Of a stretch of 64,000 bases of DNA, positions 27,995 to 38,545 are shown piece by piece. How positions within the stretch are numbered: the first letter of the stretch is position 1; each line of letters begins with the position of its first letter. Source of the DNA: an uncultured Collinsella sp. GTDB lineage: Bacteria > Actinomycetota > Coriobacteriia > Coriobacteriales > Coriobacteriaceae. A model generated the notes under the pieces. The model was not told the DNA's origin, searched no databases, and saw only the letters and a program-made list of their open reading frames with translations. Where the stretch lies: positions 1-64,000 of the forward strand of contig CANRSF010000006.1 in NCBI GenBank assembly GCA_947642445.1, read 5' to 3'. A program made the translations under genes and the position numbers.

Positions 27995-28618
27995 TTAACT
28001 GTTCTTCATGACAATCGAATCCACGACATCGGCCACATTCTCGCAGCAGTCGGCGCAGTACTCCAGGAAGGCGTACACGTCACGCCAGGCGATAACCTCG
28101 AGCGGGTCCTTGCCGTTAACGTGCAGGTTACGCATGGCGTTGATATAGAGCTCGTCGGCCTCGGACTCGATGGTGTTGATCTGGATGACGAGCTCGCGCA
28201 GCGTCTTGGACTTGCGGTAGTTGGGCAGCTCGACCATCAGGTCCTTCATGGCGCGGCAGGCGTCGGTCACCTTGTGGGCGATGACGATGGCGTCGGGATG
28301 GATGCTCTGAATGTTGGTGAAGTAGACGCGCTGCACGACGCCCTCGATACGGTCGAGCACGGTGTCGAGCGAGCAGCTCATCAGGTCCAGGTCCTCGCGC
28401 TCAAGCGGGGTGATAAAGGCGGTGAGCAAGGCGTCTTCGAGCTCGTGGTGCTTCTTGTCGGCCGCATGCTCGATCGTGTGCATCTTGTCGAGCATATCGT
28501 GAATCTTTGCAGGATCGAAGTTCTCGAAAATCTTGGTGAGCAGCTCGGCGGCCTGGACGGCAAGGTCGGCGCAGGCGACGTAGTTGTCAAAGTAGAACGA
28601 ATCGGGTTTCTTTGCCAT
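27995..28618 (-). CDS. DUF47 (PhoU-like) phosphate transport partner
   Basis: Helical PhoU-like protein of 207 residues, encoded directly downstream of a PiT permease, the standard arrangement for DUF47 regulators of low-affinity phosphate transport. Recognisable by KKPDSFYFDNYVACADLAVQ at the start, EHAADKKHHELEDAL with the metal-ligand-like Glu/Asp pattern, and EAVIAW-like LEVIAWRDVYAFLE near the end. RBS GAAAGGACC. Acts in the cytoplasm, presumably on the permease at 28686-29735. Confidence 0.9.
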   Translation of the reverse strand: MAKKPDSFYFDNYVACADLAVQAAELLTKIFENFDPAKIHDMLDKMHTIEHAADKKHHELEDALLTAFITPLEREDLDLMSCSLDTVLDRIEGVVQRVYFTNIQSIHPDAIVIAHKVTDACRAMKDLMVELPNYRKSKTLRELVIQINTIESEADELYINAMRNLHVNGKDPLEVIAWRDVYAFLEYCADCCENVADVVDSIVMKNS

Positions 28619-28685
28619 GAGTGGGTCCTTTCGAGGCGAAGACGGGTGGGCGAGGTGTTACGGTCCGGATGGACGTTCGGTTTGA

Positions 28686-29735
28686 CTAGAGGAACATCAT
28701 GAACAGCTTGGCCATGACAAAGCTGATGAGTCCGCAGGCGGGGAAGGTGAAGAACCAGGTGAACATCATGTCCTTGACGACGCCGAAGTTGATGGCCGAG
28801 AGGCGTTTGACGGCACCGACGCCCATGATGGCGCAGGTCTTGATGTGCGTGGAGGACACGGGGATGCCGGTAAGGGTGGCAAGCAGCAGGTTCGCGGCGC
28901 CCGCCAGGTCGGCGGAGAAGCCCTGGTACTTTTCGAGCTTGACCATGCTCTGGCCAACGGACTTGATGATGCGCTCGCCGCCCACGCTGGTGCCGATGCC
29001 CATGGTGGCCGAGCATAGCAGCATAATCCAGATGGGGATGCCGGCATCGCCGACGCTCGTCTGGCCGCTGGCAAAGGCCACGCCTAAAAAGAGCACGCCG
29101 ATGAACTTCTGTCCATCCTGCGCGCCGTGCATAAAGCTCATGGCCGCAGCGCTCGCGATCTGAGCGTATTTAAAGAAGACATTGGCACGTCGCCTGTTGG
29201 CGGCGGCGAAAAGAATCGAGACGAGCTTGCACAGGACCCAGCCCATGACAAAGCCCAGACCGATGGAGAGCGCCAGGCCGTAGATGACCTTCATCCACTC
29301 GTGGACGTTGACGCTGCTCGCACCGCCGAGGGCGATGGCGGCACCGGTCAGGCCGGCGATAAGGCTGTGGCTTTGCGAGGTGGGGATGCCAAAACGCGAC
29401 GCTGTGGCGCCGTAGACGACGATGGAGAACAGCGCCGCGCACAGACAGGCGAGCGCCATGGTGCTGTTTCCGCCAAAGTCGACAATATGGGAGATGGTGT
29501 TGGCGACGCTCGCGTTAAAGTGCGTCATGATGAGCACGCCAAGGAAGTTGAATGCGGCACTCATGAGAATAGCGGCGCGGGCGGGCATGCAACGCGTAGT
29601 GACGCAGGTCGCGATGGCGTTGGGTGCGTCGGTCCATCCATTGACGAAGATGGCGCCGAGCGCGAGGATTACGGTGACGGCAAGGACTGGGTTCGACACA
29701 AGTTGGCCGAGGAAGGTTGAGAACGTTACGTCCAT
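28686..29735 (-). CDS. PiT family inorganic phosphate transporter
   Basis: Low-affinity phosphate:cation symporter in the cytoplasmic membrane. 349 residues and about ten hydrophobic segments. The two PiT signatures are intact: GWTDAPNAIATCVTTR near residue 33 and SFMHGAQDGQK in the second half, plus TSQSHSLIAGLTGA and SSTHIKTCAIMGVG. It is upstream of its DUF47 partner by 67 nt. The genome thus has both Pst (19895-24334) and PiT uptake within 10 kb. Confidence 0.95.
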   Translation of the reverse strand: MDVTFSTFLGQLVSNPVLAVTVILALGAIFVNGWTDAPNAIATCVTTRCMPARAAILMSAAFNFLGVLIMTHFNASVANTISHIVDFGGNSTMALACLCAALFSIVVYGATASRFGIPTSQSHSLIAGLTGAAIALGGASSVNVHEWMKVIYGLALSIGLGFVMGWVLCKLVSILFAAANRRRANVFFKYAQIASAAAMSFMHGAQDGQKFIGVLFLGVAFASGQTSVGDAGIPIWIMLLCSATMGIGTSVGGERIIKSVGQSMVKLEKYQGFSADLAGAANLLLATLTGIPVSSTHIKTCAIMGVGAVKRLSAINFGVVKDMMFTWFFTFPACGLISFVMAKLFMMFL

Positions 29736-31104: not shown

Positions 31105-31150
31105 CGGCGAGTTGCGGCGGTGCTTGCCGCGCGCGTAAATCAATGCGAAA

Positions 31151-31176
31151 GGCGGTCCTTCGGGGCCGTCTTTTTT
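31151..31176 (+). terminator. Intrinsic terminator after the BI-1 gene
   Basis: GGCGGTCC, tetraloop TTCG, GGGCCGTC (two G-U pairs), then TTTTTT. Confidence 0.82.
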
Positions 31177-31241
31177 GTACGTGGCGGGGTATCATGGATG
31201 AGAAAAGCCGATAGCGGCAGCGACAGGAAAGGTGGCCACGT

Positions 31242-32372
31242 ATGGCAGACGTCGACAACAGGAACCGTAACCGCAGGTCCAATCGAGCGGGTCAGCCCAA
31301 CCCCAAGCGCGAGGCCCGTGCTAAGGCCGCCGAGCGTCACGTGGCAACTGTGTCCGAAGCGTGCGCCAAGGATATCGAGCGTTCGCTTGCCGGTGTTCGC
31401 GAGTTTGACGGTATGCCTGCCGGCTTTGTCGCGGCGATGAAGGCCAAGGCCCAAGCGGCTGCGGCTGCCGAGGAGCCGGTTGCCGAGGAGTCTGAGTCCG
31501 CCGAGGTCGAGGCCGCTGAGGTTGCGTCCGTCGAGACCGAGGTCACGGACGAGTCTGCGCCTGCCGAGGAACCCGCAGAGACCGAGTCCGCGCCTGCCGA
31601 GGAGCCCGCTCCGACCCTGCCCGAGGTCACCGTGCTTGATGCCTCCGCCACGCAGGCCATTCTGGACAACGGCCGTGGCTATGCGCAGTTCTGCGACATG
31701 GCAGTGCTCGCCTTTGCCTCGTTCACCAACCCGGGTGGCGGCTACATCCAGGGCTATCTGGGCCAGGAGGCTACGCTCTGCGCCGATTCGTATCTGTACA
31801 ACGTGCTCGACAAGCAGCGCAAGTGGTATGGCGAGAACCGTCGCCGCAATATCAACTGCGAGCTCTACCGCAACCGTGCGCTGGTAGTGCCTGCGGTGCG
31901 TTTTGGCCGCAACCACGTGCATGCGTATGCCGATGTGATCGTGGCCGCCGCGCCCAATGCCAAGCGCGCACGCCAGGAGTACCGCGTGAGCGACGATGCG
32001 CTGCTGGACGCGCTGCGCGACCGTATCCGCTTTGTGCTCGCCATCTGCGACGAGCTGGGTCGCGAGAAGCTCGTACTGGGCGCTTGGGGCTGCGACAACA
32101 ACGGTTTTGATGCCGAGGCCGTGGCCGAGATTTTCCGCAAGGAGCTCGCATCGGGCGACTTCAAGGTCAAGCAGGTCTTCTTTGCTGTGCCCTCTACGCG
32201 CTGGGATGAGGACTTCGCCAAGTTCGAGCATGTGTTGGCAAGCTTCCCCGAGCGCAACGAGGAGTCCTATGCCCAGGTTGCCGCCCGCGCTGCGGCAGCT
32301 CGCGCCGCCGAGCAGGCCCAGGCTGCTACCGAGGATGATGAGGACGAGGACGACTGGCGCAAGTACCTGTAA
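31242..32372 (+). CDS. TIGR02452 family, microbial PARG-like macrodomain protein with altered QEE motif
   Basis: 376 residues. The first 35 residues are very basic (NRNRRSNRAGQPNPKREARA); residues 70-130 are a Glu/Ala/Ser/Pro low-complexity linker; the rest matches the microbial poly(ADP-ribose) glycohydrolase-like family (NPGGGYIQGYLGQEATLC near residue 165, LVLGAWGCDNNGFDAEAVAE near 280). Active bacterial PARGs carry GGG-x(6-8)-QEE, with the second Glu catalytic. Here the codons read GAG-GCT, so the motif is QEA and hydrolase activity is doubtful. The C-terminal tail is acidic. Monocistronic, with its own terminator. Confidence 0.85.
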   Translation: MADVDNRNRNRRSNRAGQPNPKREARAKAAERHVATVSEACAKDIERSLAGVREFDGMPAGFVAAMKAKAQAAAAAEEPVAEESESAEVEAAEVASVETEVTDESAPAEEPAETESAPAEEPAPTLPEVTVLDASATQAILDNGRGYAQFCDMAVLAFASFTNPGGGYIQGYLGQEATLCADSYLYNVLDKQRKWYGENRRRNINCELYRNRALVVPAVRFGRNHVHAYADVIVAAAPNAKRARQEYRVSDDALLDALRDRIRFVLAICDELGREKLVLGAWGCDNNGFDAEAVAEIFRKELASGDFKVKQVFFAVPSTRWDEDFAKFEHVLASFPERNEESYAQVAARAAAARAAEQAQAATEDDEDEDDWRKYL

Positions 32373-32397
32373 GCGGTGCGCGCGATGTGATATGCCA

Positions 32398-32431
32398 AGC
32401 CGACGGGAGGGGTTGCCCCCGTCGGCTTTTT
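32398..32431 (+). terminator. Intrinsic terminator after the PARG-like gene
   Basis: AGCCGACGGG (32398-32407) pairs with CCCGTCGGCT (32418-32427), followed by TTTT. Confidence 0.85.
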
Positions 32432-32450
32432 ACTGAATGGGGAGCTCAAG

Positions 32451-36234: not shown

Positions 36235-37044
36235 CTACAAGGCCTGTTCGTTCAGGAAGACCAAAGTGTTTTTATTTGAAAGCTCGGGGATGTGACGATA
36301 ACCAACGTCGAACGCGGTGAGCCCGCTTACATCCTCGAGCTTGTTTTCTGCCATCCACCGCACCATGGAGCCGCGCGCCTTTTTGCTGGCGGTCGAGCGC
36401 TGGATGGGCTTGCCGTTGCGGATGCCTTCGCCAAAGAGACATGTGACGACCGTGGCGTCGCCCGCGAGGTGGGGCAGAACGGCTTTGGCATACTCTACGC
36501 TGGCGAGGTTGATGATCGTAGCGTTGGAGCCCGCCGGAGCGATGGCCCGTGCGAGCTTGTCGTCCCAAAACGCGTAGAGGTCTCGGACATCGTCGACGGC
36601 GAGCTTCGCGCCCATCTCCAGCCGATACGGTTCAACGGCATGAAAGGGGCGTACGCATCCGTAAAGGCCCGAGAGGATCCATAGATGGTCTTGAAGCCAT
36701 GCGAGCTGTGCGGCATCCATGACCTCGGGCGCCATGCTTTGGTATTGGATGCCGTGGTAGGACATGACGGCGGGGGAGAGGTGACGGGCGAGTTCGGGAT
36801 TGTCGAGATCGCCGTATTTCAGGATGAGCTCGAACTCATGCAGGGTGTTGAGGCAAGGCCCCAGCAGTTTGTCACTCACGTTCCATAGCGCCTGCAGGCT
36901 GTCGCTGCCTTCATTCCGCTCGATATCTAGCAGCGCGCGGTGGAGGCGAGCCGTCTCGCGCGCAAAGGGCGGAATGCCCAGGACTTCAAAAGCATCTTGG
37001 GCCGCGCGCATCTGCTTGGCGGGCGAAATGACGACCTGCAGCAT
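36235..37044 (-). CDS. yaaA: Peroxide stress protein YaaA (UPF0246/DUF328)
   Basis: Cytoplasmic DNA-binding/iron-protecting stress protein in E. coli; mechanism poorly known. About 269 residues. The opening VVISPAKQMR and DAAQLAWLQDHLWILSGLYG, LRPF-like VRPFHAVEPYRLEMGAKL, FWDDKLA and NLASVEYAKAV are family landmarks. The minus-strand ATG at 37044 behind AGGAGA is chosen; the frame upstream of it encodes no family sequence. Confidence 0.93.
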   Translation of the reverse strand: MLQVVISPAKQMRAAQDAFEVLGIPPFARETARLHRALLDIERNEGSDSLQALWNVSDKLLGPCLNTLHEFELILKYGDLDNPELARHLSPAVMSYHGIQYQSMAPEVMDAAQLAWLQDHLWILSGLYGCVRPFHAVEPYRLEMGAKLAVDDVRDLYAFWDDKLARAIAPAGSNATIINLASVEYAKAVLPHLAGDATVVTCLFGEGIRNGKPIQRSTASKKARGSMVRWMAENKLEDVSGLTAFDVGYRHIPELSNKNTLVFLNEQAL

Positions 37045-37147
37045 GGACTCTCCTCTGCCAAAAAGGAAGTTGCGGTGGAATACGGTCTGTTTTGGCCGTT
37101 TATGGGCCAGTTTAGTCTGTATTTCACCGCAACTGATGAAGGGTTGG

Positions 37148-38545
37148 TTACGCGCGCTCGATGAAGGCCTTGTAGCCGCGATAGGCCTCGTAGATATCGG
37201 CCTTGTTAGCGACCTCCCACAGGGCGTGCATGGACAGGACGGCAACGCCAGAGTCGATGACGTTCATGCCGTACTTAGCCATGATGTATGCGATGGTGCC
37301 GCCGCCGCCCGCGTTGACGCGACCGAGCTCGCAGGTCTGGAAGTCCACGCCGGCCTCGTCCATGATGTCGCGGATGAGGGCCACATACTCGGCGTCGGCG
37401 TCGTTAGAGCCGCCCTTGCCGCGGCTGCCCGTGTACTTGTTAAAGCACAGGCCGCGACCCATAAAGGCTGCGTTCTTGGTTTCGAACTTGCCGGCGTAGC
37501 CCGGGTCGAAGCCGGCGGACACGTCGGAGGAGAGCATGCGGCTGCGGGCGAGCGCGCGGCGCAGGGCCAGCGGGCTATCCTCGCCGGCGAGCGTCATGAT
37601 CTCGGCGACGGTGTTCTCGAAGAAGCGGCTCGTCATGCCGGTGGCACCCACGGAACCGATCTCCTCCTTGTCGACGATGAGTGTGATGCTCGTGCGCTCC
37701 ACGTTGGCGACGTTGATCTGGGCGAGCATGGACGGATAGGCGCAGACACGGTCGTCGTGGCCATAGCCCAGAATCATGGAGCGGTCGAGGCCCATGTCAC
37801 GGGCGGGGCCGGCGGGCACGACCTCGATCTCGGCGGAGAGGAAGTCCTCCTCCTCGACGTCGTACTGCTCCTTGAGGATATCCAGGAACATCTGCTTGAC
37901 GGGCTCCTTGGGAGCGTCCTTGTCGTCCTCGTCAAACTTGACGGGGCGGCCGCCCACGATCACGTCGAGGATCTCGGCGTCGACGGCGTCCTTGGCGGGC
38001 TTGGCCATCTGCTCGCTCGAGAGGTGGATCAGCAGGTCGGAGATGGTAAAGACCGGGTCGTCGGCCTTGTCACCGATGTTGATGTCGACGGTGGTGCCGT
38101 CCTTTTTGCAGATGACGCCCACGAGTGCGAGCGGGGAAGCGACCCAGTGGTAGCTCTTGACGCCGCCATAGTAGTGCGTGTCGAGATAAGCCATGTCGCC
38201 GGCCTCGAAGGCGGGGTTCTGCTTGAGGTCCAGGCGCGGCGAGTCCACGTGGGCGCCCAGGATGTTAAAGCCCTGCTCGAGCGGGGCGGTGCCCAGGTTG
38301 ACGAGCATGAGGTCCTTGCCGTGGTTGGCGGCGTACACCTTGTCGCCGGCCTTGAGCGCGCGGCCCTCGGCGATCACGGTCTCCAGATTGACGTAGCCCG
38401 CCTCCTCGGCCATCTTGATACCGGCCTTGACGCACAGGCGCTCGGTCTTGTTCTCACTCAAAAACTGCTTATAGCCGCGGCAAAGCTCCTCGAGCTCCTC
38501 GATCTGCTGTGGCGTGTACTTTTTCCATGCGCTGGGACGCTCCAT
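37148..38545 (-). CDS. M18 family aminopeptidase
   Basis: Cytoplasmic zinc aminopeptidase (aspartyl aminopeptidase family; a P1 acidic preference is usual but not proved here). About 465 residues. Metal and catalytic motifs: GAHVDSPRLD near residue 100, DKEEIGSVGATGM near 300, DVSAGFDPGY near 350, and the final metal His in LSMHALWEVANKAD. Start at minus-strand ATG 38545 behind AAAGGAG, giving MERPSAWKKY. Divergent from polA. Confidence 0.93.
   Translation of the reverse strand: MERPSAWKKYTPQQIEELEELCRGYKQFLSENKTERLCVKAGIKMAEEAGYVNLETVIAEGRALKAGDKVYAANHGKDLMLVNLGTAPLEQGFNILGAHVDSPRLDLKQNPAFEAGDMAYLDTHYYGGVKSYHWVASPLALVGVICKKDGTTVDINIGDKADDPVFTISDLLIHLSSEQMAKPAKDAVDAEILDVIVGGRPVKFDEDDKDAPKEPVKQMFLDILKEQYDVEEEDFLSAEIEVVPAGPARDMGLDRSMILGYGHDDRVCAYPSMLAQINVANVERTSITLIVDKEEIGSVGATGMTSRFFENTVAEIMTLAGEDSPLALRRALARSRMLSSDVSAGFDPGYAGKFETKNAAFMGRGLCFNKYTGSRGKGGSNDADAEYVALIRDIMDEAGVDFQTCELGRVNAGGGGTIAYIMAKYGMNVIDSGVAVLSMHALWEVANKADIYEAYRGYKAFIERA

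What the first reader, a model, noticed from the sequence alone, without database searches (positions are those of the whole stretch)
31242..32372. PARG-like protein with QEA instead of QEE
The family's GGG-x(6-8)-QEE motif needs the second Glu for poly(ADP-ribose) hydrolysis. Here the codons are GAG-GCT, so Glu is followed by Ala. Together with the long charged N-terminal linker, it may be a reader of ADP-ribose or an altered-specificity hydrolase rather than a classical PARG.
Basis: partly seen in the sequence, partly recalled or inferred. Interest (0 to 1): 0.5.

Follow-up and report, generated by a model that had tools for sequence, protein, structure and literature searches.

The report
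Gut-bacterium PARG relative missing its catalyst
This Collinsella gene makes a relative of enzymes that cut ADP-ribose chains, but its close species group has lost the residue that does the cutting while keeping the protein under strong selection, so it probably does another job, most likely binding.

Summary
In detail: codons 31767-31772 are GAG-GCT, giving GGG-x7-QEA in a 376-aa bacterial-type PARG (TIGR02452, PF10021). It is not a read error: all 21 close-group Collinsella rows examined carry QEA, with macro-core dN/dS about 0.02. In the same group the PARG loop-2 patch G[AV][FY] became [DE]NN and a pocket Asp became Ala (20 of 21). Across the class the derived lineage lacks the catalytic Glu in 83 of 115 rows (61 Gln, 22 Ala), including 37 of 37 Eggerthellaceae-type rows; 49 of 50 outgroup-order loci read QEE and one is unread. 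The first Glu stays in 129 of 129. The derived lineage shares an acidic C-terminal tail ending DDWRKYL-like (77 of 78), or LPEG[VI]TxR in the Eggerthellaceae type (37 of 37), that none of 14 other rows has. The model matches T. curvata PARG (Z 29.0). I read it as a PARG-derived macrodomain that no longer hydrolyses poly(ADP-ribose) the classical way and works by binding a ligand and a partner. The rebuilt pyrophosphate loop makes simple ADP-ribose reading uncertain. I ran no assay and found none reported. This is a new variant of a known family.

The parts
31242..32372 (+). CDS of the PARG-like protein, 376 aa plus stop
   Evidence: match in 40 of 43 same-genus genomes, own genome included
31293..31427 (+). 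residues 18-62: conserved N-terminal helices (part of the TcPARG-like N-terminal extension)
   Evidence: AF2 helices 21-40, 42-51; model 23-332 aligned to TcPARG 3-276; dN/dS 0.06 for residues 1-62
31428..31616 (+). residues 63-125: acidic Ala/Glu-rich linker, mostly predicted disordered
   Evidence: 18 D/E, 2 K/R of 63; pLDDT under 50 at 81-118; dN/dS 0.345
31617..32261 (+). residues 126-340: PARG-type macro core
   Evidence: VIA Z 29.0 to 3sig; dN/dS 0.022
31710..31712 (+). Ala157: Asp in QEE/QEQ relatives, Asn in typical bacterial PARGs
   Evidence: A in 20 of 21 QEA-clade rows, D in 57 of 57 other clade-b rows, N in 12 of 13 typical rows
31764..31772 (+). Gln175-Glu176-Ala177, the QEA replacing the catalytic QEE
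32088..32108 (+). residues 283-289, loop 2: GCDNNGF in place of GCG[VA]FGW
   Evidence: DrPARG equivalents Gly224-Gly226-Val227-Phe228
32313..32369 (+). residues 358-376: acidic C-terminal tail ending DDWRKYL-COOH
   Evidence: motif in 77 of 78 clade-b rows and 0 of 14 other rows; the exact DNA pattern for DWRxYL-stop occurs once in the window's genome
31147..31174 (+). hairpin with U tract upstream, probable terminator of the Bax1-I-family gene (inference)
   Evidence: 31140-31182 folds at -18.8 kcal/mol, z -3.5; z -1.7 for the longer stretch 31120-31245; not listed by the consensus scan
32397..32431 (+). hairpin with U tract downstream, probable terminator of this gene (inference)
   Evidence: 32396-32434 folds at -25.1 kcal/mol, z -5.1; not listed by the consensus scan

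Best explanation
The gene encodes a PARG-derived macrodomain that has lost the classical PAR-hydrolysis chemistry and now works as a binding protein. Shown here: the catalytic Glu is Ala in all 21 rows of the Collinsella aerofaciens group; the loop-2 patch that strains the distal ribose is also gone; the protein is under strong purifying selection; it belongs to a lineage of its class that lost the Glu repeatedly and kept a conserved acidic C-terminal tail. Inferred: the pocket, which keeps the GGG loop and Glu176 (DrPARG Glu111, a ribose ligand), binds a nucleotide-like ligand without cleaving it, and the tail recruits a partner, so that the protein acts as a sensor or adaptor. Which ligand and which partner are unknown.
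For: QEA in 21 of 21 group rows, macro-core dN/dS 0.022 at pS 0.28, three synonymous Ala codons. Catalytic Glu absent in 83 of 115 derived-lineage rows against 0 of 13 typical rows counted (a fourteenth row, L108, is QEG) and 0 of 49 readable loci of 50 fetched from an outgroup order. Glu176 kept in 129 of 129. DrPARG E112A: no activity, ADP-ribose affinity little changed (PMC6445106, passages). F287 present in 45 of 45 rows with Glu177 and in 23 of 84 without it. Tail in 77 of 78 and 37 of 37 rows, 0 of 14 others. PARG fold: Z 29.0 to 3sig and 28.8 to 3sij, the E115A mutant of TcPARG. One genome (G296) holds both a typical QEE copy (L078) and a derived QEQ copy (L111), which suggests separable roles. 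No Macro, ARH, DarT or KptA family match in the window's genome, which is 96.6% complete.
Against: No binding or activity data. Asp/Glu285 sits where DrPARG's Gly226 backbone holds the pyrophosphate, which should weaken ADP-ribose binding. QEQ need not mean inactive: mouse PARG E749Q keeps residual activity (PMC3897571, passages), and three QEE rows sit inside a QEQ group in the careful tree (not so resolved), so Glu/Gln may switch both ways. The partner role of the tail rests on conservation alone. Independence of the pocket changes is not significant on the tree (3 supported pairs). The PARP family search had a silent control, and other ADP-ribosyltransferase families were not searched, so writers are not excluded.
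Confidence: 0.55

Rival explanations
1. Altered hydrolase: the protein still cleaves an ADP-ribosyl or other N/O-glycosidic bond, using Glu176, water held by other residues, or the new loop-2 acid, on a substrate other than PAR.
For: Glu176 invariant in 129 of 129. The loop-2 Gly285 became acidic (17 Asp, 4 Glu of 21 QEA rows; Asp in G013 and G025) only where Glu177 and Phe287 are both gone, three changes on the careful tree. Bacterial PARGs have a wide substrate range including RNA 2'-OH and phosphate ends (PMC11833690, passages).
Against: In that paper mutation of the main catalytic Glu abolished RNA 2'-OH hydrolysis too. DrPARG E112A is dead on PAR although it keeps the other Glu. The ribose-straining aromatic is also lost. 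An acid at 285 is not the rule where Glu177 and Phe287 are both lost: 23 of 61 such rows have it, 37 keep Gly and 1 has Arg.
Confidence: 0.2
2. Scaffold: the pocket is a relic and binds no nucleotide; the fold and the C-terminal tail serve protein-protein contacts only.
For: Pocket sites changed more than others: of 99 positions conserved in the rest of clade b, 4 of 19 in the two pocket loops are fixed differently in the QEA clade against 2 of 80 elsewhere (Fisher p 0.012, loops chosen after seeing them). Asp285 is unfavourable for pyrophosphate. The tail is the constant feature.
Against: GGG, Gln175, Glu176, Cys180 and Gly283-Cys284 are the same in all 21 QEA rows, and macro-core dN/dS 0.022 suggests the pocket is still used.
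Confidence: 0.2
3. Read error or a decaying enzyme in one strain.
For: None found.
Against: QEA in 21 of 21 rows of the group with three Ala codons; dN/dS 0.022; no stop inside any listed same-genus match.
Confidence: 0.02

Closest known systems
Bacterial-type (microbial) PARG, PF10021/TIGR02452: T. curvata PARG (3sig) and D. radiodurans PARG (5zdb)
   Same: Fold (Z 29.0 and 26.9), N-terminal helices aligned to TcPARG, GGG loop, Gln175-Glu176; 28% identity over 242 and 29% over 236 aligned residues
   Different: Second catalytic Glu is Ala; loop 2 Gly-Val-Phe is Asp-Asn-Asn; acidic linker inserted; acidic C-terminal tail ending DDWRKYL
T. curvata PARG E115A (3sij) and D. radiodurans PARG E112A, laboratory mutants
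   Same: The Glu-to-Ala change seen here; DrPARG E112A dead on PAR, ADP-ribose binding kept (PMC6445106, passages)
   Different: The mutants keep loop 2 intact; the natural protein does not
Reader-type macrodomains (macroH2A1.1, PARP14 macrodomains, ALC1)
   Same: Macrodomain without hydrolase activity used for recognition (PMC10789625 and PMC6500376, passages); same general fold (Z 15.1-16.5 for the macroH2A1.1 and PARP14 rows up to rank 36; ALC1 is not among the 50 rows shown)
   Different: PARG class, not Macro PF01661 class; ADP-ribose binding not shown
TARG1/ALC1-type hydrolases
   Same: TARG1 uses an Asp in loop 2 (PMC6500376, passage); here an acid appeared in loop 2
   Different: No profile match to PF01661; the exact position differs as far as I recall TARG1's loop; no loop-1 Lys shown

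Membership tests
Bacterial-type PARG (PF10021/TIGR02452), by descent | Profile match over curated cut-off | tested here: met
   51 bits over 23.5; 135.8 over 50
Bacterial-type PARG (PF10021/TIGR02452), by descent | PARG-class macrodomain fold | tested here: met
   pLDDT 80.6; Z 29.0 to 3sig, rmsd 2.1 over 242 residues, next non-PARG row 16.5
Catalytic PARG | GGG-x(6-8)-QEE with both Glu | tested here: not met
   QEA, 31764-31772
Catalytic PARG | Loop-2 G[AV][FY] patch that strains the distal ribose (PMC7050489, passage) | tested here: not met
   Residues 285-287 are DNN
Catalytic PARG | Asn/Asp before the GGG motif contacting the distal ribose | tested here: inconclusive
   Position 157 is Ala where relatives have Asp/Asn, but I could not confirm from a structure that this is the contacting residue
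Catalytic PARG | Hydrolysis of poly(ADP-ribose) | not testable with these tools
   No assay
ADP-ribose reader macrodomain | Binds ADP-ribose without cleaving it | not testable with these tools
   No ligand docking or assay; Glu176 kept, pyrophosphate loop altered
Macro PF01661 (MacroD/TARG1/ALC1) | Profile match | tested here: not met
   Only PF10021 matched at E up to 0.1
Known anti-phage defence protein | PADLOC profile match | tested here: not met
   0 families at E up to 0.01

The most novel reading that the evidence does not exclude
A relocated carboxylate: the catalytic acid was moved from loop 1 (Glu177) to loop 2 (Asp/Glu285), making a new type of PARG-class hydrolase. The loop-2 glycine is Gly in 45 of 45 rows with Glu177 and turned acidic in three lineages that lack both Glu177 and Phe287; within the QEA clade Asp (17) and Glu (4) interchange, so the charge and not the residue is kept. 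Against it: 37 of the 61 rows lacking both keep Gly285, nearly all of them Eggerthellaceae-type, so at most it holds for some of the lineages.
Probability: 0.08. Interest if true: 0.75.

Novelty: new variant of a known kind. Interest (0 to 1): 0.48.

Why it matters
Bacterial PARGs are known as erasers of ADP-ribosylation, with physiological roles called unknown in PMC11833690 (passage). A class-wide lineage in common gut bacteria that keeps the fold while repeatedly discarding the catalytic Glu, in natural QEE/QEQ/QEA/PEQ series, makes it directly testable whether a PARG can serve as a reader or sensor. It also warns that genes named PARG by profile in this class should not be assumed to hydrolyse anything. 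The conserved C-terminal tail is a concrete handle for finding a partner.

Tried and rejected
Read error or pseudogene: rejected. A shifted Glu: rejected, same spacing as QEE relatives. Conserved operon partner: among 100 loci over 5 kb (partly the same genomes twice, many reaching only 3 kb each side), no cluster other than the gene itself and frames overlapping it occurred in more than 27 loci; those 27 are about 2 kb downstream on the opposite strand, where the window has the phosphomethylpyrimidine kinase gene, and its overlapping frames. Phage or plasmid origin of this variant: the alignment of relatives found none in viral contigs (two patterns, 600 candidate stretches, none confirmed); tblastn gave only matches under 60% identity, none covering 80% of the query (23 plasmid and 18 phage records); no PHROGs family at E up to 0.01. 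Shared tail elsewhere in the genome: the exact pattern for DWRxYL-stop matched only this gene. Writers: DarT (control rang in 1 of 14) and KptA (3 of 14) gave no match; the PARP search is uninformative because its control was silent. One origin of the loop-2 acid: the careful tree needs three changes and 0% of 200 bootstrap trees show one, but the AU test does not reject one clade (p 0.161) and two of the rows are long branches. Correlation of Glu loss with loop-2 change by independent pairs: not significant. Viral baseline for QEE: of 63 distinct proteins 52 were called QEE by the regex and I read QEE in the printed residues of 8 more; 3 were not resolved; that scan was partly seeded on QEE, so I do not use it as a baseline.

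Rows dropped: G172 and G088, weak profile matches with no ORF hit to my model. L108 (G278, f3, QEG, long branch) stayed in the tree but was left out of the group counts. The tree left out 15 near-identical QEA rows, all Eggerthellaceae-type rows and the other non-derived rows except L099. Papers: PMC7050489, PMC11833690, PMC6445106, PMC3897571, PMC6500376 and PMC10789625 seen as passages only; PMC10221186 (recurrent loss of macrodomain activity in host immunity and viral proteins) as listing and start of abstract only. Searches for prior reports: none listed was on this family in the class, but several lists were capped: 4 papers; 0; 1; 2; 0; 8 of 688 shown; 8 of 589 shown; 10 of 11 shown; the library lacks most subscription papers, so this does not show that nothing is in print.

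Full report
What is there. The ORF at 31242-32372 encodes 376 aa. It matches TIGR02452 (135.8 bits, cut-off 50) and PF10021, microbial PARG catalytic domain (51 bits, cut-off 23.5), and no other Pfam family at E up to 0.1. By sequence its solved relatives are D. radiodurans PARG (5zda-g) and T. curvata PARG (3sig, 3sij). The AlphaFold2 model, from 25 window and locus sequences, has mean pLDDT 80.6, with residues 1-17 and 81-118 under 50. VIA-align gives Z 29.0 to 3sig (rmsd 2.1, 242 residues) and 26.9 to 5zdb; the best non-PARG row is 16.5. It is a PARG by descent and fold.

The residue. Gln175-Glu176-Ala177 are CAG GAG GCT at 31764-31772. From the alignment and the residue numbers in PMC6445106, Glu176 equals DrPARG Glu111, which hydrogen-bonds the distal ribose, and Ala177 equals DrPARG Glu112, the catalytic Glu. 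That paper reports that E112A has no detectable PAR hydrolysis and little or no change in ADP-ribose affinity (passages). In mouse PARG E749N is dead and E749Q keeps residual activity (PMC3897571, passages). So QEA is the natural counterpart of a tested dead but binding-competent mutant.

Conservation. In the genus search 40 of 43 genomes, own genome included, have a match. All 21 rows of the close group, including this genome, have QEA; the named records of that group are Collinsella aerofaciens and other Collinsella records (loci L002-L019). Pooled Nei-Gojobori dN/dS over these 21 rows is 0.022 in the macro core, 0.06 in residues 1-62, 0.345 in the linker and 0.065 in the tail. Ala177 is coded by GCC 18, GCG 2, GCT 1. 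This is a used protein, not a decaying one.

The pocket changed as a set. In the same 21 rows residue 157 is Ala in 20 (Asp in 57 of 57 other clade-b rows), and residues 285-287 are [DE]NN, where typical rows have G[AV]F in 13 of 13. [quoted passage not shown] Phe287 is present in 45 of 45 rows with Glu177 and in 23 of 84 without it. Of 99 positions at least 90% conserved in the rest of clade b, 6 are fixed differently in the QEA clade, 4 of them among 19 in the two pocket loops (Fisher p 0.012, loops picked after seeing them). Of the 61 rows that lack both Glu177 and Phe287, 23 have an acid at 285, 37 keep Gly and 1 has Arg.

Class-wide picture. TIGR02452 rang in 121 of 296 genomes of the class (Coriobacteriia, a name I take from the genus). 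I fetched the remaining loci and built 129 rows, five of them from an outgroup genus of the same phylum, with two weak matches dropped. Three groups appear. First, 14 rows outside the derived lineage, including the outgroup and the intermediate L099: 13 have QEE and L108 has QEG. Second, clade b, 78 rows in family codes f1 and f2: Glu 32, Gln 25, Ala 21. Third, 37 rows of family code f3: PEQ 36, PEA 1. I link the codes to Coriobacteriaceae (Collinsella, Enorma), Atopobiaceae (Olsenella) and Eggerthellaceae (Slackia) by matching named loci with coded loci of equal contig or frame length; the link and the family names are inference. In all, 83 of 115 derived rows lack the catalytic Glu. The first Glu is kept in 129 of 129. 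As baseline, of 50 loci fetched from an outgroup order (inferred to be Streptomycetales; 113 of 147 genomes had a match) 49 read QEE and one is unread at the motif. On the trees residue 177 needs at least 12 changes over 129 rows or 10 over 64 rows. The QEA clade has support 100/100. In the quick tree its sister is a QEE pair (support 90); the careful tree leaves it unresolved among QEE and QEQ lineages inside a supported group (96/93). In the careful tree three QEE rows sit inside a QEQ group, so back-change from Gln to Glu is possible; the quick tree does not resolve this.

The tail. In 77 of 78 clade-b rows the protein ends in [DE][DE]W[RHK]xYL after an acidic run; the exception ends DWRAYLK. 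All 37 f3 rows have LP[ED]G[VI]TxR in the last 20 residues, and L162/L163 join both forms (DDWRQYLPEGVTVR). None of the 14 other rows has either. In the window's genome the DNA pattern for DWRxYL-stop occurs once, here. A tail kept across the class while the catalytic Glu comes and goes points to a partner contact; this is inference.

Setting. Bax1-I family gene upstream; GDSL hydrolase, phosphomethylpyrimidine kinase and ThiC downstream. Hairpins with U tracts lie on both sides, although the consensus scan did not list them and found no promoter-like site on the plus strand, so transcription alone is a guess. No neighbour cluster was found in more than 27 of 100 loci. The genome (96.6% complete) gave no match to Macro (PF01661), ARH (PF03747), DarT or KptA families; the PARP search is uninformative.

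How it most likely works. The classical acid for glycosidic cleavage is missing and the ribose-straining patch is gone, so PAR hydrolysis is improbable. Binding of a nucleotide-like ligand remains likely because the GGG loop, Gln175 and Glu176 are fixed. Plain ADP-ribose reading is weakened by the acidic residue at 285. I commit to a binding protein (sensor or adaptor) at 0.55, with altered hydrolase and pure scaffold at 0.2 each.

Noticed in passing
L125-L127 and L130-L163 (f3, Eggerthellaceae-type loci): All 37 carry PEQ (36) or PEA (1) in place of QEE, with an invariant GGxY...GPE signature and an LP[ED]G[VI]TxR tail: a PARG-like group without the catalytic Glu.
   Followed up: partly
L078 and L111 (genome G296): One genome has both a typical QEE PARG and a derived QEQ copy with the DDWRxYL-type tail.
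   Followed up: partly
L108 (genome G278): A PARG-like protein with QEG and a divergent AAGAN loop in place of PGGG, on a long branch.
   Followed up: no
window 36235-37245: Peroxide stress protein YaaA family gene about 4 kb downstream (Pfam PF03883).
   Followed up: no
window 27995-29735: DUF47 (PhoU-like) and PHO4 phosphate transporter genes side by side on the minus strand.
   Followed up: no
phages collection, Prevotella Lak phages: Giant Lak phage records (15 Prevotella records, all rows listed at 34-38% identity) hold a region similar to the macro core of this protein; the records carry no annotation.
   Followed up: no
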